From NCBI RefSeq assembly GCF_002706795.1, contig NZ_CP017705.1:4563501-4627500 (forward strand): a DNA stretch of 64,000 nucleotides, written 5' to 3'. This DNA is from Brevibacillus laterosporus DSM 25 (GTDB lineage Bacteria; Bacillota; Bacilli; Brevibacillales; Brevibacillaceae). The notes under the pieces were generated by a model, which was not told where the DNA came from, ran no database searches, and was given only the letters and a program-made list of their open reading frames with translations. A program made the position numbers and the translations under genes. Below are positions 44,254 through 54,497 of this stretch, piece after piece (within the stretch, counting starts at the first letter, position 1; every line of letters begins with the position of its first letter).

Positions 44254-44673
44254 TTGGAAGATAATCATTCCGTTGATCATGATATCCAAACAGTAATGAT
44301 CGAAATGAGCCGTGTGCAACAAAAATCAAAGGCTTTTATGGATATTTTTACAAAAGATGTGGTTTTATCACAAAATCATGTTATGTTACTAATCGACTTA
44401 AAACTAGCAAATAGTATGAGAATCACTGAAATCTCCGAAAGATTCCTCATTACAGCAGGTGCTGCAACTGCTATGTGTGACAAATTAGAAGAGCTTGGTC
44501 TAGTGTGTAGAATTCGTACGAAAGAGGATCGTAGAGTGGTTTTGGTTGCTCTTACAGAAAAAGGAGAAGAAAAAATAAACCAAGTATTTAAAGGCTTTTC
44601 TAAGGAAAAGCTACATGAATTTGCTAATGTATTTAAGCAGGTAAATGAATTATTGTCAACAATTATTGATTAA
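44254..44673 (+). CDS. MarR-family regulator
   Basis: 139 residues from TTG 44254 (AAGGTGG upstream; GTG 44242 is part of that site). Winged helix with ITEISERFLITAGAATAMCDKLEELGLVCRIRTKEDRRVVLVALTEKGEEKI; the KEDRR wing is the MarR hallmark. One cysteine in the recognition helix (AMC) may be redox-active, but this is speculative. An AT-rich pair of palindromes (44761-44774 and 44807-44820) lies after its terminator and before the next small gene, a possible binding site. Confidence 0.88.
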   Translation: MEDNHSVDHDIQTVMIEMSRVQQKSKAFMDIFTKDVVLSQNHVMLLIDLKLANSMRITEISERFLITAGAATAMCDKLEELGLVCRIRTKEDRRVVLVALTEKGEEKINQVFKGFSKEKLHEFANVFKQVNELLSTIID

Positions 44674-44704
44674 TATGGAAGAATGAGTAAAATGTAAGAC
44701 AAAA

Positions 44705-44742
44705 GTGGGCTACTCCAATCATGGGGTAGCTTATTTTTTATT
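44705..44742 (+). terminator. Rho-independent terminator
   Basis: GGGCTACTCC / GGGGTAGC stem followed by TTATTTTTTATTTTATTTTG. Confidence 0.8.
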
Positions 44743-44915
44743 TTATTTTGTTGACAGAAAAATATATGTATATTAAGTTATAAATGAAATATATTTTAGT
44801 TATTAAAATATATACATATTAAATTATGTGAGAACGAGGATGGTGGGGCTTAGATGAATAAAACCTACCTTATTTATTTCTGAAATAGTTCTATGTAGAT
44901 GAAAGGGAGAAATAC

Positions 44916-45209
44916 ATGATGGAAAATAGGTATATTCAATATTTATGTAGAGGAGTAGTAGGTCTGTTTGCGGTTCCTGTACTCAGCGTCTTTTCTATAG
45001 GAATGTGTATTTGCTCCTTTGTCTCTGTGATTGGCGGGGTGCTATATATAGTGGGGTTTGACATTCATTTGAGCATTTGGAAGTTTGGTCAAGTATCACA
45101 GCTGTCTAATTTTTTTATCTCTGTGATGTTTGGTGGGATTTTATTACTAGTAGCTTTCGGTAGTTGGAGGCTGTTACAAGTATCTTGTCACTATGTTAAG
45201 AAAGGCTGA
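44916..45209 (+). CDS. Small membrane protein, unknown function
   Basis: 97 residues; AAAGGGAG precedes two adjacent ATG codons (44916 and 44919). Two or three hydrophobic segments (about residues 13-45 and 62-85) indicate an integral membrane protein with a short basic C-terminus. The gly-rich hydrophobic pattern (VVGLFAVPVLSVFSIGMCICSFVSVIGGV) recalls HAAS/DUF1700-associated membrane proteins, but I cannot name a family. TTGACA at 44752 and an AT-rich -10 region form a possible promoter. Confidence 0.6.
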   Translation: MMENRYIQYLCRGVVGLFAVPVLSVFSIGMCICSFVSVIGGVLYIVGFDIHLSIWKFGQVSQLSNFFISVMFGGILLLVAFGSWRLLQVSCHYVKKG

Positions 45210-45236
45210 AATATAACGAAGGATTCATGTTGTAAG

Positions 45237-45334
45237 AAAAAAGAACATGTATAATTAATATCAGAAATTCAATATTATTTTGCTGAGATTAGCAATTATC
45301 TCCAATCCAGTATGAGTGTACGTTCTTTTTTTAC
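45237..45334 (+). terminator. Terminator-like hairpin with long loop
   Basis: AAAAAAGAACATGT (45237-45250) pairs with the GTACGTTCTTTTTTT run (45318-45332) across a loop of about 65 bases. The stem end and T-run support termination of the small membrane gene; the loop length is unusual. Confidence 0.4.
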
Positions 45335-45370
45335 TAGCATCTGTATTACATGTGAGGAGGAAATGAAAAA

Positions 45371-45916
45371 GTGATCGTAAATCTAGGGACATTTCAAATT
45401 ACATCTGGGACATTAGTGGTATCAGATCCTTGTTATGAATGTCAACAAGGCATTTCAGGAATTGTAGAAGAAGCGGCAATTGGTACATGGATAGGTATAA
45501 TCGATCAAATTGACACAGGAGATTGGGGAGAGCGATGTGCCTATGTTTGTGCTTATCACGAGTCAATTGACATTGAACAAGTGACGAATTGGGAAGCATG
45601 TGACTTTATTGTAGGGGTAGACAGCGGTCAAGCGGGAATCTTTGAGCATCAAATATATAGAGTGGATGATTCTGTAATCGGAGAAACGAAATTCATGCCT
45701 GAGGATAGATGGTACTCTTCCTGCTGCGATCAGACTTTGGGTGAGCCAAAAGCAGGAGTGATTAATGGAGGGGTCGTATCTAGCTCGGGATTTGGCGATG
45801 GGGGTTATGATGCATTTATCGCGAAAAATGCTGAAGGTAAAGTGATTGCAGTGCAAATCGTATTTATTACAGAAGAGGATTTACTTGAAGAGGAGGAAGA
45901 CGAAGACGAAGTGTAA
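45371..45916 (+). CDS. DUF4241-like protein
   Basis: 181 residues, GTG start with GAGGAGG at proper spacing. The start (GTFQITSGTLVVSDPCYEC) and the end (SGFGDGGYDAFIAKNAEGKVIAVQIVF) match my recollection of the DUF4241 pattern; a highly acidic tail (EEEEDEDEV) follows. Nine cysteines, two adjacent (SSCCDQ), are many for a cytoplasmic protein and could bind metal. It has no signal peptide. DUF4241 proteins are of unknown function and appear in secretion-linked polymorphic loci of Gram-positives. Confidence 0.65.
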   Translation: MIVNLGTFQITSGTLVVSDPCYECQQGISGIVEEAAIGTWIGIIDQIDTGDWGERCAYVCAYHESIDIEQVTNWEACDFIVGVDSGQAGIFEHQIYRVDDSVIGETKFMPEDRWYSSCCDQTLGEPKAGVINGGVVSSSGFGDGGYDAFIAKNAEGKVIAVQIVFITEEDLLEEEEDEDEV

Positions 45917-45927
45917 TCCTACACCCA

Positions 45928-45954
45928 TAGGGACCTGAGTGGTTCCTTTTTTAC
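45928..45954 (+). terminator. Rho-independent terminator
   Basis: AGGGACC / GGTTCCT stem with a 5-nt loop, followed by TTTTTTAC. Confidence 0.75.
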
Positions 45955-46058
45955 ATTATTTTTTAACTTATATAATATTATGATAACGATTGATTAATTC
46001 TAGTAAAGTAAGCTTCTATAGTAGTATTTTATGGTTATCTTAATGAAGGGAGAAACCG

Positions 46059-46991
46059 ATGAAGAAAAAAATTACATACGAGTTACGCAGGTTTATAGAT
46101 ATTAGCCCATATACAGAGGATTATGAGGTAGTAACTTCAGCATTGGGTTATGACAAAAAGATATACATCTTACTAGTGAATAAAACACCAGAAAGAATGG
46201 ATGGAATGTTTGTTCAATCAAAAACAACAAGCCTGTTTACCTATAAAGTACTAACGATTGCTGAAGATGGTCAAATCTATGAAACGTCGCTATCTAAGCA
46301 GCGATACAACTATCATTTTATACAGCCTATCAATGACGATAACCTGTTGGTAGTTGGTGCAAGAACAAGATATTTTGGTCCTAACAATTACGAGCTTAAC
46401 GGCAAAATTTTTGATTTGGATGGGAATCTAATCAAGGAGTTGTTACTAGGAGATGGGATTCAAAATGTACAAGTATCAGCTAACGGGACTATTTGGACAG
46501 GGTTTTTTGATGAAGGAGTATTCGGGAATTACGGATGGGTCGAACCAATCGGAGCTTCAGGCCTGATTGCTTGGGATCGAAATGGAAAACAAGTATTCTC
46601 AAATCACAAGGCAGATATATGTGATTGTTATGCATTAAATGTGGCTAGTGATCAAGAGATTTGGTTCTATTACTATACCGACTTTCACTTAGTAAAAATA
46701 GCTAATGATCAAATGGAGTTTTTCAATCCTAAAATTTCAGGATCATCAGGTTTTATTACCTATAACAGTTACTTTTTATTTGATAAAGGATATGGTAAAC
46801 ATGATGAATATATCTTACTGAAAAATAATAACTCTGGGAAGTTTATACAAAAATGTGAAGTAAGGTTTATCACTCAAGAAGGAAAGACGATTCAGTCATA
46901 TGATCGAGATTTTAGAGGAGATGTTTTGATTCTGAGAGAAGGAGATTGCTTATATAAAGTTCATTTACATGAGATTGTAAATCGAGTGTGA
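46059..46991 (+). CDS. Beta-propeller-like protein of unknown function
   Basis: 310 residues, AAGGGAG before the ATG. No signal peptide or membrane segment. Repeating strand pairs ending in Asp-Gly or Asn-Gly turns (TIAEDGQIYET, IFDLDGNLIKEL, QVSANGTIWTGFFDEGVFG, AWDRNGKQVFSN, ASDQEIWFYYYTDFHLVKI) suggest a beta-propeller or NHL-like fold. Such orphans are common in Brevibacillus and Bacillus accessory DNA. It is monocistronic. I do not recognise a family. Confidence 0.65.
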   Translation: MKKKITYELRRFIDISPYTEDYEVVTSALGYDKKIYILLVNKTPERMDGMFVQSKTTSLFTYKVLTIAEDGQIYETSLSKQRYNYHFIQPINDDNLLVVGARTRYFGPNNYELNGKIFDLDGNLIKELLLGDGIQNVQVSANGTIWTGFFDEGVFGNYGWVEPIGASGLIAWDRNGKQVFSNHKADICDCYALNVASDQEIWFYYYTDFHLVKIANDQMEFFNPKISGSSGFITYNSYFLFDKGYGKHDEYILLKNNNSGKFIQKCEVRFITQEGKTIQSYDRDFRGDVLILREGDCLYKVHLHEIVNRV

Positions 46992-47590
46992 TTACAAGGG
47001 AGGAATATTTGTCATATATACGGAGGTCCCTATCTTTGTTTTATCTAGTATTTGTTTTTTGTGCTAAGTTTTTCATATTCGCTTATTGTACTGTTTAGAC
47101 GTTTAGGAAGCCCTGATCTGAGTCAGATATCCTTCTTGAACGTCTCTTTCTTTTGCCACTTATTCTACAGTGTCTAAAATAAGTCTAAACTCATTTTTTA
47201 TCTTCCAAATCTGTCTGCATTGTACAGATTTGGATTGCTTTTTAGGTAATCTACCTGTGTCCTTCAAGTAATTCCTTTCCTAGTCCAACAGTGCACTGGG
47301 CGTACCTTAAAAGAAGACCTACTTATATTGCTGTTCCTCACTTGTTCAAAATGCTTTCTCCACTTCGTTTTTTTCACCCTATTCATTAGTCCCCAATATT
47401 TCAGCAATAAATCAAAATCCTTTGGTTATTACATCCCAGCATCAGCATTTTCGTACTCTATTCGAAAGTGTAATTGTGACATTTTTTTTAAAAAATGCAT
47501 TTTTAAAGAAAAATATGTAATAAATTTTTGAGTTAATTTCCAATATATGTTAAGTTTTATTAAAATATAGAAAGTAGAGAGGTGTTATCG
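46992..47590. other. AT-rich intergenic region upstream of the bacteriocin block
   Basis: Holds a short perfect palindrome (ATCTGA-G-TCAGAT, 47116-47128) and the promoter of the LuxR-type gene. A 67-codon frame at 47328 has neither ribosome site nor protein-like composition and is left out. I see no gene here. Confidence 0.5.
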
Positions 47591-48268
47591 TTGCAACAGC
47601 ACACAGAGATGCCGGTAGTGACAATAAACCATTTGCTCACTTATCTTAAAGAAGAAATTCACTTTGTCCAGCCTTTTTTTCATAACCCTTATTTCTTTAT
47701 TGTAACCAATAAGGATGCTAAGAGCATTGATTTTATGTGCTCACATGGAAAGTTGAAGAATGAAGAAATGGATGATTCTTTTCAGAAGAGCATGATTGCG
47801 CTCTCAATGGAGACGATCCAAGAGGCAAGCTTTACAAAAACTCCTGCTATTCGATACGGAGATGAAATGCTTCCAAATGCACTACCAGGATGGATCAGTA
47901 TTGGAAGTCCTATTTATATAAATAATAAAAGAAAGGGATATGTTAGTTTAAATTATCAATCAGAAGAGCATATCTCCTACATAGTCAATATTTTTTGCTA
48001 CATCATAAAAACAGTAGAAAGGAAATTAAACAATGTTGATACTTCCCACAAAGAGCAGGAACTGGAGAAGAAATTCAAAGTTTTTCAGCTAACTAAGAAA
48101 GAATGCGAGATAGCTAGTAGTCTTCTTGAAAATATTTCGATCAAAGATATTTCAAAGCATCATTTTATTTCGGTAGAGACTGTAAGAACACATGTAAAAA
48201 ATATTTACAATAAGGTTGGAGTAAACAACAGAGTAGACTTAATTAGAACATTTGTCTACCACGGATAA
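47591..48268 (+). CDS. LuxR-type HTH regulator of the bacteriocin locus
   Basis: 225 residues from TTG 47591 (AGAGAGGTG 6-7 bases upstream; GTG 47582 lies in that site). The C-terminal 60 residues are a LuxR/GerE helix-turn-helix (FQLTKKECEIASSLLENISIKDISKHHFISVETVRTHVKNIYNKVGVNNRVDLIRTF). The N-terminal 150 residues look like a GAF/PAS-type sensor (FFIVTNKDAKSIDFMC, LPGWISIGSPIYINNKRKGYVSLNY). No phospho-acceptor domain is seen, so a small-molecule or peptide signal is expected. It is 250 bases upstream of, and co-directional with, the bacteriocin gene, making it the likely activator. Confidence 0.85.
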   Translation: MQQHTEMPVVTINHLLTYLKEEIHFVQPFFHNPYFFIVTNKDAKSIDFMCSHGKLKNEEMDDSFQKSMIALSMETIQEASFTKTPAIRYGDEMLPNALPGWISIGSPIYINNKRKGYVSLNYQSEEHISYIVNIFCYIIKTVERKLNNVDTSHKEQELEKKFKVFQLTKKECEIASSLLENISIKDISKHHFISVETVRTHVKNIYNKVGVNNRVDLIRTFVYHG

Positions 48269-48520
48269 AATCCCCCTTGAAGGTGATTTCAAATTCATTT
48301 GGTTATAATATAATAAAAATAGAAAATATTACCATTTTAAAAATGAATGATATTTTTATCATAGCAGTCGAAAATGGTGATTTTTCAATGTGGTTCGAGG
48401 GTTCTTATATCTCTAGCGCGCTTTTCCATGGAATAGAGTGTAATCCCGTGCACCACAGATGAAAGAGTATGTGTAAGTTAATTCTTAAAAATTCTAACAT
48501 TTGAATGGAGGATGAAAGGT
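48269..48520 (+). other. Promoter region of the bacteriocin gene
   Basis: AT-rich, with a TATAATATAATAAAA run near 48304 and GGAGG at 48507-48511. A 61-codon frame beginning at 48277 has AAGG nearby but its start lies over that site and its composition follows the AT-rich background; I do not accept it as a gene, though a second small peptide cannot be excluded. Confidence 0.35.
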
Positions 48521-48679
48521 ATGGCATGCGTAAATGAATGTCCAGATGCAGTTGATGATTGGGTTTACGGTGATTGGAAGTGTCACCCAGTAGAAGGAAA
48601 ATATTATAGACATGTTTTTGCTGTTTGCATGAATGGTGCTAATTTGTATTGCAAAACAGAATGGAGCAAAGGCTGCTAG
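48521..48679 (+). CDS. Laterosporulin-family defensin-like bacteriocin
   Basis: 52 residues. Begins MACVNECPDA and ends CKTEWSKGC; six cysteines at 3, 7, 21, 36, 44 and 52, with the HVFAVCMNGANLYCKTEW core matching laterosporulin and laterosporulin10 of Brevibacillus (known class IId peptides, about 5.6 kDa, three disulfides, human-defensin-like fold). There is no leader or signal peptide: only the initiator Met precedes the Ala that starts the mature forms. GGAGG lies 9 bases before the ATG. Spacing of all cysteines is conserved with the known members as I remember them; residues between them differ, so this is a distinct variant. Too short for ordinary gene finders at a 60-residue cut-off. 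Confidence 0.92.
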   Translation: MACVNECPDAVDDWVYGDWKCHPVEGKYYRHVFAVCMNGANLYCKTEWSKGC

Positions 48680-48713
48680 ATTTTACACATAGATAGGAAA
48701 TACAGAAGGGAAG

Positions 48714-48742
48714 GGAACACTCTATCTAAGATAGAGTGTTCC
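48714..48742 (+). terminator. Perfect 13-bp stem-loop between bacteriocin and machinery genes
   Basis: GGAACACTCTATC / GATAGAGTGTTCC with a 3-nt loop (TAA), no T-run after it. It probably protects the 3' end of a short bacteriocin message or partly attenuates readthrough, so that peptide is made in excess of the proteins encoded downstream. Confidence 0.75.
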
Positions 48743-48772
48743 TAGTCCTTTATCTTAGTGGGAGGTTAAAAA

Positions 48773-49258
48773 ATGGAAGCAGATAATCACAAAAAGTTCC
48801 TCAAAAACCCAGATCGTTTTTTGGAAAAGATCGGTAGTTTTTTTCCGGAAGAAATGAATTTAATGAAAGATGGACCATCCTTAGATTTTACATGGGTTCG
48901 TAAGGAGGCTTGTGGAACAGTTATCTACATAATGAGTGATTCATGCAGGTTTTGTAGATTTGATGCCATAAAACAGTTTGCTGACAAATACAATAAATTT
49001 TATCATTTGATTTTCTTATATGGTTCAGAGGAATCTAAGGAACAGATAAGAGAAGAGTATGAGATTTCCATTCCGATCGAGTTGACGGATCTAAAAGAAA
49101 TAGGAGAAAAATTATTTATAGAGCTGGTTCCTACTATGATTGCAATGAATCGTGTCGGTCAAATTATCACTTGTGGTAGTTTTCGTAATGAAGTGGAGTC
49201 ACTTGAAATGAGAATGGAACCGTTTCTGAATGTCTATTACTCCTTGGAGAGTTGTTAA
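48773..49258 (+). CDS. Thioredoxin-fold protein with CxxC (bacteriocin locus)
   Basis: 161 residues. C58-R-F-C61 follows a hydrophobic strand (TVIYIMSDSCRFC), placed like the active site of thioredoxin and TlpA-like proteins; later ELVPTMIAMNRVGQI supplies the cis-Pro strand. No signal peptide or membrane segment, so it probably works in the cytoplasm or on the inner face of the membrane. GGGAGG precedes the ATG. As the first gene after the six-cysteine peptide it is a likely disulfide oxidase/isomerase or chaperone for it. Overlaps the reading frame leading to the transporter. Confidence 0.75.
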   Translation: MEADNHKKFLKNPDRFLEKIGSFFPEEMNLMKDGPSLDFTWVRKEACGTVIYIMSDSCRFCRFDAIKQFADKYNKFYHLIFLYGSEESKEQIREEYEISIPIELTDLKEIGEKLFIELVPTMIAMNRVGQIITCGSFRNEVESLEMRMEPFLNVYYSLESC

Positions 49259-49260
49259 AA

Positions 49261-51111
49261 ATGAACCTGAATGGCAGTGATTCTGTACATAGCACGAGTA
49301 ACCGAGAGCATTTGGGATTTTTTCAAAGGATGCGACACAGGAAACATTTATTTCTGTATGCGTGTAAAATCGTCTGGAGATTTAATAAAACCTACATGCT
49401 TTTGGTAGGTTCCTTAAGTATTATTCTTGCACTACAATCAAATGCAATTATTATTGCGAATAAATATACAATCGACAATCTTGTCAGTTCACAAATATAT
49501 CTTGCGTTACTTGGAATTGGAATGATGCTATTCCTCGAATTGCTTCAGGAGGCGTTTGATCTTTTCCTGCGATTCTATAATTCGAAATGCGATGAACAGT
49601 TTGGGATTTACAGGGAGCAACAACTATTTGACAAGCTAGCAAGAATGCAATTGTTAGAACGTGAGCATCCTAGTTTTTTAGGAAAGATACAGGTATGGTC
49701 GCTTGGACTTATGAAAATACAAGCCACCTTTCAAACAGGGATACAATGTGTAAAAGCTTTACTGACAGGGGGACTTTCCATTTATGTGCTGGTAAGTGGG
49801 TATTGGCTCATAGGTGCTATTATTATTGGGTTTTCCCTTATAAAAAGCATATTTGTGTTTAAGGTTATCGATCCACTTGTCAGTATGAATTTACAAATGG
49901 CACGCGCTCATAACCTAACTACGTATTTTCGAGATCTATTAGTCCGAAAAGAGGCCCAAAAGGAATTTCTCTTATTTCAGGCCTTCTCCTTTTTTAAAGA
50001 GAAATGGCTTGATGCGAAAACAAACATCATGAACATGAATATTAAAATCACGAAATTAAATGTAAGACCAGAACTGATCAGTAGTTTGTTATCTGTATGT
50101 AGCAGATTGCTTATTATGGTGATGATGGTCTTTCTTGTTGCAGATAAGAGGATGACCATTGGAGATTTCGTTGCGGTATCATTGGCTGCCTCTTTGGCTG
50201 AAAGAAATATCCTCTCTCTGTTTCTCCAATGCAAAAATCTATTAGAAAATCTGCGCTATGTAGATGAGTATAAGAAATTGGATCTGATTACTCCGAGCAA
50301 GGAGGATAAACAAACGGCGATAACAGATTTTCAGCTAAAGCAAGGTATAGAGGTAATCGATTTAACCTTCACCTATCCGAATAGATTGGAACCCGCGCTT
50401 CATAATATCAATCTATCGGTAAAAAAAGGGGAGAAGATTGCTATTATTGGCGATAATGCAGCTGGTAAATCTACGTTGATAAAGCTATTGCTAGGCTTAT
50501 ACCAGGCTCCAGATAACACGATTTTTTATGATGGTGTGGAACAAAAACAACTAGATGTTGCTGGCTTATGGAAAAGCTGTGGGGCAATCTTTCAGGATTT
50601 TATGAAGTACAAGGTATCTATTCAGGATAATATCTGCTTGGGAAATGAAAGGAAGGACGATCAGGAGCTATATCATCTGCTCGAACATCTGAATATTCAA
50701 GATTTCTATCGGTTAAAAAACGGTTTGTCTACCAAGCTTGGAGACATTCATGAGGATTCGGTAGACTTATCCGGAGGTCAATGGCAAAGAATCGCACTAG
50801 CTAGACTATTATATCGAAATCTGGATTTGATGGTATTAGATGAACCTACTTCTGCCTTAGATCCGAACAGTGAAGTGAAAGTATTTGACGATATCCTAGA
50901 GTTAGCGAAGGATAAAACACTCTTCATCATTTCTCATCGAATTGGAATCGGTAAAAAGGTAGATCGCATCTATTATATGAGGCAAGGAAGTATTATCGAG
51001 CAAGGAAGTCATCAGCAATTAATGGATGCAAAGGGTGAATATTATCAAACCTGGGAACGTCAAAGTGAGTGGTATAATTCAGAATTAGTTTACGAAAATA
51101 GGGGGTCATAA
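49261..51111 (+). CDS. ABC exporter, fused membrane and ATPase domains
   Basis: 616 residues from ATG 49261 (GGAGAG upstream; TTG 49252 is closer than useful spacing). The N-terminal 330 residues carry about six membrane helices; the ATPase has Walker A GDNAAGKST, signature LSGGQWQRIALARLL, Walker B LMVLDEPTSALDP and switch ISHR. There is no C39 peptidase, which agrees with a peptide that has no leader to remove. The sequence resembles RiPP exporters such as lantibiotic LanT without protease. It should export the laterosporulin-like peptide, dimerising with itself. Confidence 0.88.
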   Translation: MNLNGSDSVHSTSNREHLGFFQRMRHRKHLFLYACKIVWRFNKTYMLLVGSLSIILALQSNAIIIANKYTIDNLVSSQIYLALLGIGMMLFLELLQEAFDLFLRFYNSKCDEQFGIYREQQLFDKLARMQLLEREHPSFLGKIQVWSLGLMKIQATFQTGIQCVKALLTGGLSIYVLVSGYWLIGAIIIGFSLIKSIFVFKVIDPLVSMNLQMARAHNLTTYFRDLLVRKEAQKEFLLFQAFSFFKEKWLDAKTNIMNMNIKITKLNVRPELISSLLSVCSRLLIMVMMVFLVADKRMTIGDFVAVSLAASLAERNILSLFLQCKNLLENLRYVDEYKKLDLITPSKEDKQTAITDFQLKQGIEVIDLTFTYPNRLEPALHNINLSVKKGEKIAIIGDNAAGKSTLIKLLLGLYQAPDNTIFYDGVEQKQLDVAGLWKSCGAIFQDFMKYKVSIQDNICLGNERKDDQELYHLLEHLNIQDFYRLKNGLSTKLGDIHEDSVDLSGGQWQRIALARLLYRNLDLMVLDEPTSALDPNSEVKVFDDILELAKDKTLFIISHRIGIGKKVDRIYYMRQGSIIEQGSHQQLMDAKGEYYQTWERQSEWYNSELVYENRGS

Positions 51112-51115
51112 TACG

Positions 51116-51550
51116 ATGTCAAAAAAACTAGTTCGTGATACCGGTTTAGAGATAGGTACAACGATTTCACAAATTCACTTCACAAATTGGGATTCCTCAA
51201 AACTAGAGCTGAATTTTTTGCCTAAGGGAGCAGCTTTGGTTTTCGTCTCTGTCTTTTGCTCGTATTGTATCGATTTATTGCCTCACCTTCGATCGATAAG
51301 TCAGCGTCAGAATATGCAGCTTTATCTTTTTTCTGATGGAGAGATCGAGGATCATGCAGAAATGGTTGATTATTTTGAATGGGAATTCCCCGTTATTCAA
51401 CTAAAACATAATGAGATGAACGAAATCTTTGAGGTTACCTACCATCCGTTTCTCCTGTTCGCGGATTCGAAGGGTGTGATTGTTAGCAAAGGGGATATCT
51501 ATAATGCAGTAGATATCCATAAAATTCTAGAAAGTGTATCATTACAATGA
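51116..51550 (+). CDS. Second thioredoxin-fold protein with CxxC
   Basis: 144 residues; GGGGG precedes the ATG 5 bases after the transporter stop. The start (LVRDTGLEIGTTISQIHFTNWD) is redoxin/TlpA-like, then a strand leads into C48-S-Y-C51 (VSVFCSYC). Hydrophilic, with no signal peptide or anchor visible. TYHPFLLFADSKGVIVSKG gives the cis-Pro region. Overlaps the next gene by 4 bases. Together with the MauE-like protein it looks like an electron relay. Confidence 0.75.
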   Translation: MSKKLVRDTGLEIGTTISQIHFTNWDSSKLELNFLPKGAALVFVSVFCSYCIDLLPHLRSISQRQNMQLYLFSDGEIEDHAEMVDYFEWEFPVIQLKHNEMNEIFEVTYHPFLLFADSKGVIVSKGDIYNAVDIHKILESVSLQ

Positions 51551-52080
51551 TGTCATATCTCTTCTTACTCCCATATGGTTTTGCGTTCATGTTTTTTGTT
51601 TCAGCCGTTACAAAGTGTTTTTCTATGTTTGAATTTAGGCAGTCTATTGTACACTTTGATGTTATATCCAGAAAATATGTGATGATCAGTTCCTTTTTGG
51701 TTCTTTTTATGGAATTTGTTCTAGCAATTTGTTTTTCCCAACTCGTTTTTTTACATGTGGCTTTTATCCTGACTGGCTTGTTGATGATTTTTTTTACTGC
51801 CCTTTTTATACGAGCTAGTAAGCAGAAAAAGAGTTTTGCCTGTAGCTGCTTTGGGGTCAGTGCAAATAAGACAAACATGAAACTTGCCATCCTACGTAAT
51901 AGTTTGTTATTACTTGGAGCAATATGGGGAGCATGTATAGCCAATCAGCTAGAGAGGTTACCATACGCTCAAGAGAATATCATGTCTTATCTTATTGCAG
52001 TAGCTTTTTTCATCCATGCTTATAAGGAATTACATATTTTGTATAAAATGAAGAAAAAAATAGGGATGATTGTACCATGA
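51547..52080 (+). CDS. MauE/DoxX-like membrane protein
   Basis: 177 residues with four predicted membrane helices. Between helices 3 and 4 lies F-A-C99-S-C101-F-G, the CxCFG motif of MauE-type proteins that pass electrons or disulfides between the quinone pool or membrane and thioredoxin-like partners. In methylamine dehydrogenase maturation MauE works with the thioredoxin-like MauD on a disulfide-rich subunit. Here the substrate is presumably the six-cysteine bacteriocin or the CxxC proteins of this operon. Overlaps both neighbours by 4 bases. Confidence 0.75.
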   Translation: MMSYLFLLPYGFAFMFFVSAVTKCFSMFEFRQSIVHFDVISRKYVMISSFLVLFMEFVLAICFSQLVFLHVAFILTGLLMIFFTALFIRASKQKKSFACSCFGVSANKTNMKLAILRNSLLLLGAIWGACIANQLERLPYAQENIMSYLIAVAFFIHAYKELHILYKMKKKIGMIVP

Positions 52081-52493
52081 TGAACTTCATGCTAAGTATT
52101 TGGGGCATCATACTTGTTTTGATCATCGGGATGAAGATAACAAAAGCCTTCTATTATAAAAGGTATTTTCAAATCTATGTATCTGGTAGTGAGGAAATAA
52201 CGGAATTGCATGATAAGAGTGTCTTTCTCTTTCTATCTTATACAGATCCTGGAAACGCTGAATATCTTGCGGAAATCAGCCGTCGCTTCCCTAAGTATCA
52301 GATTTATATCATCTATAAGGCACCTGAATGGAAAGCAAGGGTATTGTCCCGCCAAATAAACGATCTTGCAAAGCTACGGGTTGATGAACAGGGGATGATG
52401 TCTGATGATTTAGGGATTTCAGCTTTTCCTGCTTATCTTACCTATCAAGAGATTGTTAAGAAAATACCGATCGTACGCTTTCATACGTATTAA
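52077..52493 (+). CDS. Membrane-anchored thioredoxin-like protein lacking cysteines
   Basis: 138 residues. One N-terminal membrane helix (about 5-25) followed by a thioredoxin-like domain: SVFLFLSYTDPGNAEYLAEISRRFPKYQIYIIY then DLGISAFPAYLTYQE (cis-Pro strand). At the position of the CxxC the sequence reads YTDP, and the whole protein has no cysteine. It therefore cannot do redox chemistry and may present or scaffold the substrate, or confer self-protection. The fold call is from pattern only. Confidence 0.6.
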   Translation: MMNFMLSIWGIILVLIIGMKITKAFYYKRYFQIYVSGSEEITELHDKSVFLFLSYTDPGNAEYLAEISRRFPKYQIYIIYKAPEWKARVLSRQINDLAKLRVDEQGMMSDDLGISAFPAYLTYQEIVKKIPIVRFHTY

Positions 52494-52519
52494 GATTAGA
52501 TGCGAGGTGTTGTTCATAC

Positions 52520-52909
52520 ATGAATAGTCAATTACTAGTTGTAGATAAAGTCAATTTTAGCAGCGAACATAAAAAACATATCATAGGCCATATCCTTGAA
52601 GATATCACGGTTCCAGCATTGCCTTTTGTGTGTACTTTTCACATGTTTATCGCTTTAAAAGAGTTACCTGATCGGGCAACTTTTGAACTTCAATTGAAGA
52701 TGAAGGATCGGAATGGAAAAGACGTTGGAATTTCGAGTCCCATAACAATGTATCATGAGCGTAAGGATGACCAATCCTCTGAAATGGAAACATCATTAAA
52801 AATGTCTATGGTACTTAGTTTAGAAGGAACGTATACAGCAGAGCTATATTATGATGGAGAAGTGGTAACGACTCATCCAGTCCATGTACAGATGGAGCAA
52901 GTGTCGTAG
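52520..52909 (+). CDS. Orphan at end of the bacteriocin operon (possible immunity protein)
   Basis: 129 residues, GAGGTG before the ATG. Hydrophilic with immunoglobulin-like strand alternation (PFVCTFHMFIALKELPDRATFELQLKMKDRNGKDVG, SLEGTYTAELYYDGEVVTTHPVHV), no signal peptide and one cysteine. It resembles the DUF6941-type proteins, which I recall only vaguely. Last in the operon, before a strong terminator, a usual place for an immunity gene; but there is no membrane segment, so the function is open. Confidence 0.5.
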   Translation: MNSQLLVVDKVNFSSEHKKHIIGHILEDITVPALPFVCTFHMFIALKELPDRATFELQLKMKDRNGKDVGISSPITMYHERKDDQSSEMETSLKMSMVLSLEGTYTAELYYDGEVVTTHPVHVQMEQVS

Positions 52910-52960
52910 TAATTGTAAGGTTACTCTTATCGTAAATAAATAGAACGATCGTATTAATGG

Positions 52961-52994
52961 AGCTACCTGACTCATATGGTAGCTTTTTATTTTG
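52961..52994 (+). terminator. Rho-independent terminator of the bacteriocin operon
   Basis: AGCTACC / GGTAGCT stem with a 10-nt loop, then TTTTTATTTTG. Confidence 0.85.
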
Positions 52995-53600: not shown

Positions 53601-54497
53601 ATGATAAAAACCAACGAGCATATTATAGCAGAAGCGAAAAAGCATGGACTGTTAATAAAAGAAGATTCTTTACAGAGAAATGATTCTGGTTTAGATTTTC
53701 AGGTTGTTTTTGCACGCGATGTGGATGAAGTAAAATGGGTGTTACGATATCCAAGAAGAGAAGATGTGCTTCCTTCAGCAAAAAAAGAAAAGCAGATTTT
53801 AAACTTGATAGAATCGAAACTGTCGGTACAAGTTCCGAATTGGAAGATTTACACGGAAGATTTGATTGCCTATCAATTGTTAAACGGTGTGCCAGCAGGA
53901 ACAATTGATCCCGAAGCAAAGGCATATATTTGGGAAATTGACGAAAAAAATGTACCAGATATCTTTCATGAAACACTCGCCCTTGCAATCGCATCCTTAC
54001 ATCGGATTGATTCTACAGCTTGTAGGGAGGCAGGAATTGAAATGGAGACGGCGGAAGAAGCAAGATCTTCAATGAAGGAGCGGATGGATAAAGTCAAAAT
54101 GACATTTGGGGTAAGCGATGAACTATGGAATCGCTGGCAAAATTGGCTTGCTAATGATTCGCTTTGGCCCAAGAAAACCGCGCTTATTCATGGGGACTTG
54201 CACGCGGGTCATATTCTAGTGGATGAAGCATCACGAGTAACGGGCTTGATTGATTGGACAGAGGCAAGGATAACTGATCCTGCCCATGATTTTGTTGCTC
54301 ACTATCGGACTTTCGGAGAAGCAGCACTTCAAAGACTTATTTATCACTATGAACAAGCAGGTGGTTATGTTTGGCCAAATATGGCTGCTCATGTGATTGA
54401 ACTAACGGCTGCTTATCCTGTTGGCATTGCTGAATTTGCTCAAAAATCTGGGTTAGAAGAGTACAAAGAGATGGCTAGACAAGTGCTTGGAGTATAG
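53601..54497 (+). CDS. mph: Macrolide 2'-phosphotransferase
   Basis: 298 residues, AAAGGA before the ATG. APH-fold kinase: KWVLRYPRREDV (ATP-binding Lys/Arg), IAYQLLNGVPAGTIDPE (typical of Mph enzymes), ALASLHRID-like segment, catalytic loop LIHGDLHAGHILVDEA and metal-binding GLIDWTEARITDPAHDFV. It inactivates 14- and 15-membered macrolides by phosphorylating the desosamine 2'-OH, using GTP in studied members. Chromosomal Mph genes occur in Bacillus and Brevibacillus. The Mph class letter cannot be given. Followed by a strong terminator. Confidence 0.92.
   Translation: MIKTNEHIIAEAKKHGLLIKEDSLQRNDSGLDFQVVFARDVDEVKWVLRYPRREDVLPSAKKEKQILNLIESKLSVQVPNWKIYTEDLIAYQLLNGVPAGTIDPEAKAYIWEIDEKNVPDIFHETLALAIASLHRIDSTACREAGIEMETAEEARSSMKERMDKVKMTFGVSDELWNRWQNWLANDSLWPKKTALIHGDLHAGHILVDEASRVTGLIDWTEARITDPAHDFVAHYRTFGEAALQRLIYHYEQAGGYVWPNMAAHVIELTAAYPVGIAEFAQKSGLEEYKEMARQVLGV

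What the first reader, a model, noticed from the sequence alone, without database searches (positions are those of the whole stretch)
47591..52994. Laterosporulin-like bacteriocin with its own three-thioredoxin/MauE/ABC folding and export operon
A leaderless six-cysteine peptide of the laterosporulin family is followed by two CxxC thioredoxin-fold proteins, a MauE-like CxCFG membrane protein, a third thioredoxin-like protein without cysteines, a one-chain ABC exporter lacking a C39 peptidase, and an orphan. Everything points to a dedicated pathway that oxidises three disulfides of a defensin-like peptide and exports it without a leader. I know of laterosporulins as peptides, but not of a described biosynthetic route, so the operon could define a new maturation mechanism. 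The three-thioredoxin set (one redox-dead) is the most unusual part.
Basis: partly seen in the sequence, partly recalled or inferred. Interest (0 to 1): 0.93.

Follow-up and report, generated by a model that had tools for sequence, protein, structure and literature searches.

The report
Cytosolic disulfide factory for leaderless bacteriocins
A Brevibacillus bacterium carries the gene of a defensin-like peptide of the laterosporulin family beside six partner genes that recur next to dozens of other unnamed cysteine-rich peptide genes, and these partners are predicted to tie the peptide's sulfur bridges inside the cell before it is likely exported.

Summary
The peptide at 48521-48679 is a true laterosporulin (PF17861) without apparent leader, followed by Trx1 (CxxC), an ABC protein without C39 peptidase, a MauD-like Trx (CxxC), MauE (CxCFG), a cysteine-free Trx-like membrane protein (Trx3) and a DUF6941 protein; a LuxR-type gene precedes it.

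The machinery is a module in its own right. Profile searches found it in Brevibacillus and in at least 44 of 394 genomes of a second, unnamed family; 36 of 36 complete six-gene copies have a same-strand Cys-rich ORF beside them. The 65 distinct peptides have 6, 8 or 10 cysteines, 63 a Met-excision-permissive second residue; PF17861 matches 3 of 66 scanned. MauE's CxC and Trx3 are predicted to face the cytosol and Trx1 and MauD rarely have a signal, so I propose cytosolic oxidation, then export of the folded peptide. Co-occurrence is shown; redox direction, compartment and export are inferred.

Published attempts to express laterosporulin elsewhere failed; the fragments likely ended at or within MauD, without MauE, Trx3 and DUF6941: a testable re-reading.

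The parts
47591..48268 (+). LuxR-type regulator (TTG start)
   Evidence: PF00196 E=3.4e-13; 85-86% identical in the two other laterosporulin genomes; among the other loci, blastp relatives within 3.5 kb of the module only in L120 and L129
48521..48679 (+). laterosporulin-type structural peptide, 52 residues, 6 Cys, no apparent leader
   Evidence: PF17861, NF033806; GGAGG 9 nt upstream
48714..48742 (+). 13-bp perfect hairpin between the peptide gene and the machinery, a likely partial terminator that would set peptide excess
   Evidence: 48713-48743, 14 pairs with G-T; z=-5.0 for the 90-nt stretch; such a stretch after other module peptides: 50 of 69 segments with z<-2
48773..49258 (+). Trx1, 161 aa, CRFC, no signal or TM
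   Evidence: profile A10 vs ResA E=5.6e-7; CxxC in 65 of 66
49261..51111 (+). one-chain ABC exporter, no C39 peptidase (ATG 49261; the ORF listing gives TTG 49252)
   Evidence: PF00005 E=4.4e-28; start by SD and by homologues in L004, L005
51116..51550 (+). MauD-like thioredoxin, 144 aa, CSYC, no signal
   Evidence: TIGR02661 E=4.5e-9, AhpC-TSA E=0.0015, both below cut-off; CxxC in 65 of 67
51547..52080 (+). MauE membrane protein, CSCFG
   Evidence: PF07291 E=5.8e-21; invariant K23, E56, C99, C101, G103, R117 in 50 of 50
51841..51855 (+). CSCFG codons, on the predicted cytosolic loop
   Evidence: positive-inside counts
52077..52493 (+). Trx3, 138 aa, one N-terminal TM, no cysteine
   Evidence: overlaps MauE; Trx3-like part fused to MauE in L122, L129, L133
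52520..52909 (+). DUF6941 protein, role unknown (chaperone or immunity proposed)
   Evidence: PF22091 E=1.7e-11
52961..52993 (+). terminator-like inverted repeat plus T run at the operon end
   Evidence: read by eye; not listed, whose loop limit is 8 nt (this loop is 10)
51383..51388 (.). EcoRI site inside MauD: the EcoRI fragment with the peptide (44510 to 51383, 6,873 bp) ends here

Best explanation
The window holds a laterosporulin gene at the head of a six-gene machinery that also recurs beside dozens of other leaderless cysteine-rich peptide genes, and that likely oxidises such peptides on the cytosolic face of the membrane before its ABC protein would export them folded. Steps: (1) the peptide is made without leader and Met is removed (reported for laterosporulin; inferred here); (2) Trx1 and/or MauD, CxxC proteins without signals, would pass disulfides to the peptide (inferred); (3) MauE, with one CxC on a predicted cytosolic loop and no second conserved Cys pair, would re-oxidise them and hand electrons to a quinone (inferred); (4) Trx3, cysteine-free, membrane-anchored and paired or fused with MauE, would dock the Trx partner or the peptide (inferred); (5) the ABC protein, lacking a leader peptidase, would export the folded peptide (inferred); (6) DUF6941 may be a chaperone or immunity factor (guess). 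The cargo varies, the machinery is kept.
For: Laterosporulin (PF17861) in 3 of 39 family genomes, each with all seven neighbours; against the window the peptide is 54.5% identical but Trx1 88-89, ABC 93-94, MauD 85-88, MauE 78-82, Trx3 85-88, DUF6941 82-83%. A second, paralogous module in two of these genomes with three tandem 8-Cys peptides each, and one in G023 with the window's gene order. Trx1 profile: 60 of 394 genomes of a second family; of 62 loci read from 54 of those 60 genomes, 50 loci in 44 genomes hold Trx1+MauD+ABC (three of them with only an ABC fragment), 30 hold all six. Same-strand Cys-rich ORF within 900 bp: 36 of 36 six-gene modules, 52 of 56 Trx1+MauD+ABC loci. Such ORFs: 76 in 388 kb inside modules +-900 bp, 15 in 825 kb outside, 5 of the 15 being of the same kind. 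65 of 65 peptides have an even Cys number (background 34 of 59), Cys within residues 2-4 in 62 of 65 (15 of 59), Met-excision-permissive residue 2 in 63 of 65 (1258 of 2936); background ORFs start at the first ATG, without SD filter. MauE: K+R per sequence 3.58, 3.82, 2.98 in loop 1, loop 3 and C-term against 0.02, 0.24, 0.66 in N-term, loops 2 and 4, n=50; Trx3, 44 of 47 with a TM: K/R after it 189, before it 39. Trx1 62 and MauD 64 checked: 2 and 3 with a hydrophobic N-terminal stretch. Trx3 never without MauE (41 of 41 loci with Trx3 among 60), and the two have the best-correlated distance matrices (0.61).
Against: No redox assay, no expression data. 11 of 60 loci have no MauE (two of them with only Trx1 fragments), nor has L056, so MauE is not universal at the locus; DUF6941 is absent in 19 of 60. 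MauE proteins of other Brevibacillus cassettes show much the same charge pattern, so the topology is a family trait; three of them (L011-L013) also have 3-5 K/R in the N-terminus, which weakens the N-out call there. Trx3's fold is not proven (AF2 pLDDT 58; hhalign to MauD 0.9%). The 2012 paper reports that DTT did not affect laterosporulin activity (passage), and a search listing (PMC8529825) speaks of in-vitro folding of recombinant laterosporulin, so the machinery may not be strictly needed. A cytosol-facing oxidase must outrun the cell's thioredoxin system. The authors of the failed 2019 expression thought their clusters complete, and EcoRI sites differ between the window, L004 and L005, so where their fragments end is a guess from size.
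Confidence: 0.6

Rival explanations
1. The module is a dedicated pathway, but its redox proteins keep the cysteines reduced (or unscramble them) so that an unfolded peptide can be exported; disulfides form outside, by air or the host's general oxidases.
For: Trx1 and MauD resemble ResA/MauD-type proteins, and ResA is a reductase (recalled); ABC exporters of class II bacteriocins usually take unfolded peptide (recalled); in-vitro folding of laterosporulin is mentioned (search listing).
Against: A reducing cytosol would need no membrane MauE for this; MauE has only one conserved Cys pair, so it should not relay electrons across the membrane as CcdA does (recalled).
Confidence: 0.22
2. Ordinary extracytoplasmic oxidative folding: the charge-based topology is wrong and the MauE loop, Trx3 and the Trx proteins act outside.
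For: MauD/MauE of methylamine dehydrogenase serve a periplasmic enzyme (recalled); bacterial disulfide formation is normally outside (recalled); N-termini of MauE in L011-L013 are positively charged.
Against: K+R counts in 50 MauE and 44 Trx3 sequences point the same way; Trx1 and MauD mostly lack signals; in the three MauE-Trx3 fusions the Trx3 part follows the positively charged MauE C-terminus and its own TM is gone.
Confidence: 0.12
3. The peptides are not disulfide-bonded in the cell but bind metal through thiolates, and the machinery handles metal or thiol stress.
For: 6-10 Cys in 41-72 residues.
Against: Laterosporulin has three disulfides in its structure (statement in PMC6510442, passage) and antibacterial activity; all 65 Cys numbers are even.
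Confidence: 0.04
4. Chance neighbours: unrelated redox and transporter genes beside a bacteriocin.
For: None beyond general abundance of Trx and ABC genes.
Against: 36 of 36 complete modules beside a peptide ORF, two families, several gene orders; distance matrices correlate at 0.12-0.61, against -0.04 to 0.05 in five permutations run for Trx1-ABC only.
Confidence: 0.02

Closest known systems
Laterosporulin / laterosporulin10 (class IId, PF17861, NF033806)
   Same: The window's peptide is a member; N-terminal Ala, 6 Cys, no leader; regulator, hypothetical, ABC and 'dehydrogenase' neighbours were noted in 2012 and a seven-gene cluster in B. laterosporus MG64.
   Different: No pathway and no role of MauE, Trx3 or DUF6941 is described in the passages read; the family models match 3 of 66 module peptides.
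Sublancin (SunT, BdbA, BdbB) and other bacteriocins with a Trx accessory (bactofencin, PedC)
   Same: Dedicated thiol-disulfide proteins next to a disulfide-bearing bacteriocin (passages; PedC recalled).
   Different: Those have leaders and a leader-cleaving exporter, and act outside the membrane (recalled); here no apparent leader, MauE instead of a DsbB-type oxidase, predicted cytosolic.
MauD/MauE of methylamine dehydrogenase maturation
   Same: MauE-family membrane protein with CxC and a MauD-like Trx in one operon.
   Different: No methylamine dehydrogenase gene in the operon; the MauD-like protein has no membrane anchor; extra Trx1, Trx3, DUF6941, ABC.
Helical leaderless bacteriocins (aureocin A53, enterocin DD14, garvicin KS)
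   Same: Translated without leader; export poorly understood (review passage).
   Different: Those lack the Cys framework and the redox genes (recalled).
Actifensins
   Same: Defensin-like, three disulfides, ABC genes and a LuxR regulator nearby (passages).
   Different: 32-residue leader, protease; 'thioredoxin' does not occur in that paper.
Cytosolic disulfide systems (poxvirus E10R pathway, archaeal PDO)
   Same: Disulfides made on the cytosolic side (recalled).
   Different: No relation tested here; recalled only.

Membership tests
Laterosporulin family (peptide) | matches PF17861 / NF033806 above curated cut-off | tested here: met
   73.4 bits vs 25; 123 bits vs 40
Laterosporulin family (peptide) | six Cys in the solved framework, no leader, N-terminal Ala after Met removal | tested here: met
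   alignment to 4ozk, 6lwy, 6lwz; SD position; the N-terminus of this very peptide was not measured
Laterosporulin family (peptide) | three disulfides | not testable with these tools
   needs mass or structure
Laterosporulin family, for the other 63 module peptides | matches PF17861 or NF033806 | tested here: not met
   3 of 66 match; best non-laterosporulin score to the window peptide E=0.0014 in a set of 65
C39 peptidase-containing bacteriocin exporter | N-terminal C39 domain | tested here: not met
   no C39 match in Pfam; TIGR01193 bacteriocin_ABC 172.8 bits vs 523.85
MauE family | PF07291 above cut-off, CxC | tested here: met
   75.6 bits vs 27
MauD equivalog | TIGR02661 above cut-off | tested here: not met
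   36 bits vs 188.6: MauD-like only
Thioredoxin fold, Trx1 | CxxC plus profile match to solved Trx proteins | tested here: met
   ResA E=5.6e-7 with a profile of 38; the single sequence gives no Pfam hit; Redoxin or Thioredoxin_8 in 4 of 38 members each
Thioredoxin fold, Trx3 | fold | tested here: inconclusive
   hhalign 73% to Trx1, 0.9% to MauD, control 0.1%; Redoxin in 1 of 34; AF2 pLDDT 58
DUF6941 | PF22091 above cut-off | tested here: met
   45 bits vs 27

The most novel reading that the evidence does not exclude
A categorically new kind of bacterial peptide factory: a MauE-driven, cytosol-facing disulfide relay (Trx1, MauD, redox-dead Trx3) that folds leaderless knotted peptides inside a Gram-positive cell and exports them already folded, one conserved machine serving a very large, almost entirely unannotated family of 6-, 8- and 10-Cys peptides of which laterosporulin is merely the first known.
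Probability: 0.45. Interest if true: 0.93.

Novelty: new variant of a known kind. Interest (0 to 1): 0.85.

Why it matters
It gives a handle on how leaderless bacteriocins are matured and exported, which a 2024 review calls poorly understood (passage). It supplies a genome-mining signature that finds peptides which family models miss (63 of 66 not matched by PF17861 or NF033806), and it makes a failed experiment repeatable: a 2019 paper reports that EcoRI fragments of 6738-6750 bp with the laterosporulin cluster gave no product in other hosts and that an earlier 4-kb attempt failed too. In this window regulator to MauD is 3.96 kb and the EcoRI fragment carrying the peptide is 6.87 kb and ends inside MauD, so MauE, Trx3 and DUF6941 were likely left out. 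If the compartment prediction holds, it would be a dedicated disulfide-forming route facing the bacterial cytosol.

Tried and rejected
AF2 on Trx1 (pLDDT 45) and Trx3 (pLDDT 58): alignments of 7 and 10 sequences too shallow, so I made no fold search with these models.

Plasmid searches with MauE and the peptide: no match. A scan of genome contigs with the MauD alignment found only two loci of one B. laterosporus strain, which understates the spread; profile searches by family reached further. Phylum-wide sample with the Trx1 profile at E<=1e-10: 1 of 398 genomes, the own one. That sample also held genomes of the second family (f4) without a match, so rarity outside the two families is shown only at that threshold. 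Of the weaker class-level Trx1 hits I read three (G027, G050, G269): thioredoxins in other contexts, without the module; the rest were not read.

PDB profile hits of Trx3 to a stretch of about 43 residues of an unrelated large protein were set aside as chance: short stretch, no other support. PHROGs: no match for four proteins. DUF6941 profile vs PDB: one hit at E=2 only. The peptide profile A13 finds the three laterosporulin structures in the PDB, but contains laterosporulins itself, so this is circular.

First automated peptide calls picked wrong start codons in several loci (for example L019, L101, L109, L117); one search chose starts by SD strength instead. Filters used there (SD match of at least 5, at least 6 Cys, 28-100 aa) exclude 4-Cys or longer cargo. 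For the 65-peptide statistics I dropped L020, L139, L142, L145, L149 (other cassettes), opposite-strand ORFs and non-ATG ORFs except L094. One TTG ORF inside the ABC gene of L119 is counted among the 76 and is likely spurious. Loci with no such peptide in range: L020, L129, L133, L136, L141, L144, L147, L148; L129, L133, L136 and L141 hold one further away; L130's in-range peptide is on the opposite strand. Six of the 60 matching genomes (G438, G451, G459, G466, G515, G650) were not read.

Brevibacillus for the window's genus rests on names returned; that the second family is Paenibacillaceae is my guess.


Full report
What is there. The operon runs from a LuxR-type gene (TTG 47591) to a terminator-like repeat at about 52990. 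Order: LuxR, laterosporulin peptide, Trx1 (161 aa, CRFC), ABC (616 aa from ATG 49261), MauD-like (144 aa, CSYC), MauE (177 aa, CSCFG), Trx3 (138 aa, no Cys), DUF6941 (129 aa). MauD/MauE and MauE/Trx3 overlap by four bases. A macrolide phosphotransferase-like gene follows. The peptide matches PF17861 and the three laterosporulin structures. Its start is most likely ATG 48521: the GGAGG abuts ATG 48512. A perfect 13-bp hairpin lies between peptide and Trx1.

Conservation. PF17861 occurs in 3 of 39 genomes of the family, own one included. All three have the whole operon: against the window the peptide is 54.5% identical, the machinery 78-94%. MauE of the window finds the same three genomes strongly (277-367 bits) and nothing else above 60.1 bits in the 39; of 398 genomes of the class, 4 match at E<=1e-8, these three and G023. 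G023, the 60-bit hit, led to the generalisation.

The machinery is a module. In G023 (L019) the same six genes stand in the same order behind a different, 8-Cys peptide without apparent leader; two laterosporulin genomes carry a second module (L021, L022) with three tandem 8-Cys peptides each. A Trx1 profile then found 23 of 398 class genomes at E<=1e-4, of which only G000, G029, G030, G023, G183 and G163 exceed 60 bits. G183 and G163, of another family, hold the module with new peptides: six genes and a 10-Cys peptide in G183; Trx1, ABC, MauD, DUF6941 and a 6-Cys peptide, without MauE and Trx3, in G163. In that family 60 of 394 genomes match at E<=1e-7. I fetched 60 loci and annotated them with HMMs built from the module genes. 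Of these 60 loci, Trx1 is in 56, MauD in 57, a full ABC in 51 (3 more with only a fragment), MauE in 49, Trx3 in 41, DUF6941 in 41. With L055 and L056 that makes 62 loci from 54 of the 60 genomes: 50 loci in 44 genomes hold Trx1+MauD+ABC, and 30 loci in 30 genomes hold all six. Over the 69 loci tabulated, the commonest orders are Trx1-ABC-MauD-MauE-Trx3-DUF (14 loci, the window's) and Trx1-MauD-MauE-Trx3-DUF-ABC (11 loci).

The cargo. All 36 complete modules have a same-strand Cys-rich ORF within 900 bp; 52 of 56 Trx1+MauD+ABC loci do. The peptides: 65 distinct, 41-72 residues, 50 with eight Cys, 9 with six, 6 with ten, Ala second in 44, Cys third in 53, 46 ending in CC or nearly so, net charge -4 to +4. 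Against background small ORFs of the same loci, even Cys number is 65 of 65 vs 34 of 59, and a Met-excision-permissive second residue 63 of 65 vs 1258 of 2936; related peptides are not independent, and the starts of the module peptides were chosen by SD. PF17861 and NF033806 match only the 3 laterosporulins among 66 scanned. By single-linkage phmmer 46 of 65 fall in one group, 10 and 6 in two others, 3 alone. The direct link of laterosporulin to the rest is weak (best E=0.0014 in a set of 65), so I do not call the others laterosporulins. A stable hairpin often follows the peptide: 50 of 69 segments with z<-2, median z -3.0, in L021, L022 and L097 only after the last tandem copy.

Redox parts. 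CxxC is kept in 65 of 66 Trx1 and 65 of 67 MauD, and found in 1 of 47 Trx3. In 50 MauE sequences K23, E56, C99, C101, G103 and R117 never vary. Positive charges sit in loop 1, loop 3 (with CxC) and the C-terminus, predicting N-out, C-in and a cytosolic CxC; Trx3's soluble part is predicted cytosolic too. In L122, L129 and L133 MauE continues into a Trx3-like part without the extra TM, which ties the two together; Trx3 is never found without MauE (41 of 41). Trx1 and MauD rarely have a hydrophobic N-terminus (2 of 62 and 3 of 64). Control and caution: MauE of other Brevibacillus cassettes shows much the same charge pattern, with charged N-termini in three, so the topology is not special to this module and not proven.

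Mechanism. Shown: the gene set, its recurrence, the peptide features. Inferred: cytosolic oxidation by MauD/Trx1, re-oxidation by MauE to a quinone, a docking role of Trx3, export of folded peptide, DUF6941 as chaperone or immunity. Some loci lack MauE and Trx3; genomes G713 and G728 have another locus that has them (L128, L119), so sharing is possible (inference).

Literature. Searches. Seen as passages only: PMC6989792, PMC7017464, PMC3293901, PMC7616364, PMC5100339, PMC10731318, PMC6510442, PMC9867215. The 2012 paper named regulator, hypothetical protein, ABC transporter and 'dehydrogenase' and the lack of a protease domain in the transporter. No passage that I saw describes MauE, Trx3, DUF6941, or leaderless Cys-rich peptides with this module outside Brevibacillus; supplements and most subscription papers are not held, so absence in print is not proven. 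PMC6510442 reports unsuccessful heterologous expression of clusters carried on EcoRI fragments of 6738-6750 bp, which its authors thought complete, and says that the 2012 authors failed with 4 kb; the 2012 text itself holds no such passage under the terms I tried. The window's EcoRI fragment with the peptide is 6,873 bp and ends within MauD; the sites in L004 and L005 differ. That the BGSP fragments end at the same place is inference from size.

Noticed in passing
53601-54497: Mph-type macrolide 2'-phosphotransferase-like gene just downstream (best NCBIfam Mph(B), 414 bits, below its cut-off of 615), kept beside the operon in L004 and L005.
   Followed up: no
L091, L094, L095, L097, L104, L107, L116, L120, L122 and others: SBP-type lipoproteins (about 440 aa; PF01547/PF13416 in the four scanned) next to or inside the modules in 18 loci, three copies plus a fragment in L104; possible immunity or decoy receptors.
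   Followed up: partly
L056, L098, L107, L121, L125, L126, L129, L131, L132, L141, L144: Extra ABC ATPase genes beside 11 modules; possible self-protection.
   Followed up: partly
L020 7198-11865; also L023, L025: A different cassette: MauE, ABC and TM-anchored TlpA-like proteins; in L020 with three Cys-rich peptides that have a short N-terminal extension.
   Followed up: partly
L142, L149, L139, L145: Cassettes with MauE, a Trx-like protein with a hydrophobic N-terminus and ABC; very short Cys-rich peptides (32-36 aa, 6 Cys) in L142 and L149.
   Followed up: no
L097 9629-10507: Four identical tandem copies of an 8-Cys peptide gene; hairpin only after the last copy.
   Followed up: no
L122, L129, L133: MauE-Trx3 fusion proteins (293, 298, 323 aa).
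   Followed up: yes
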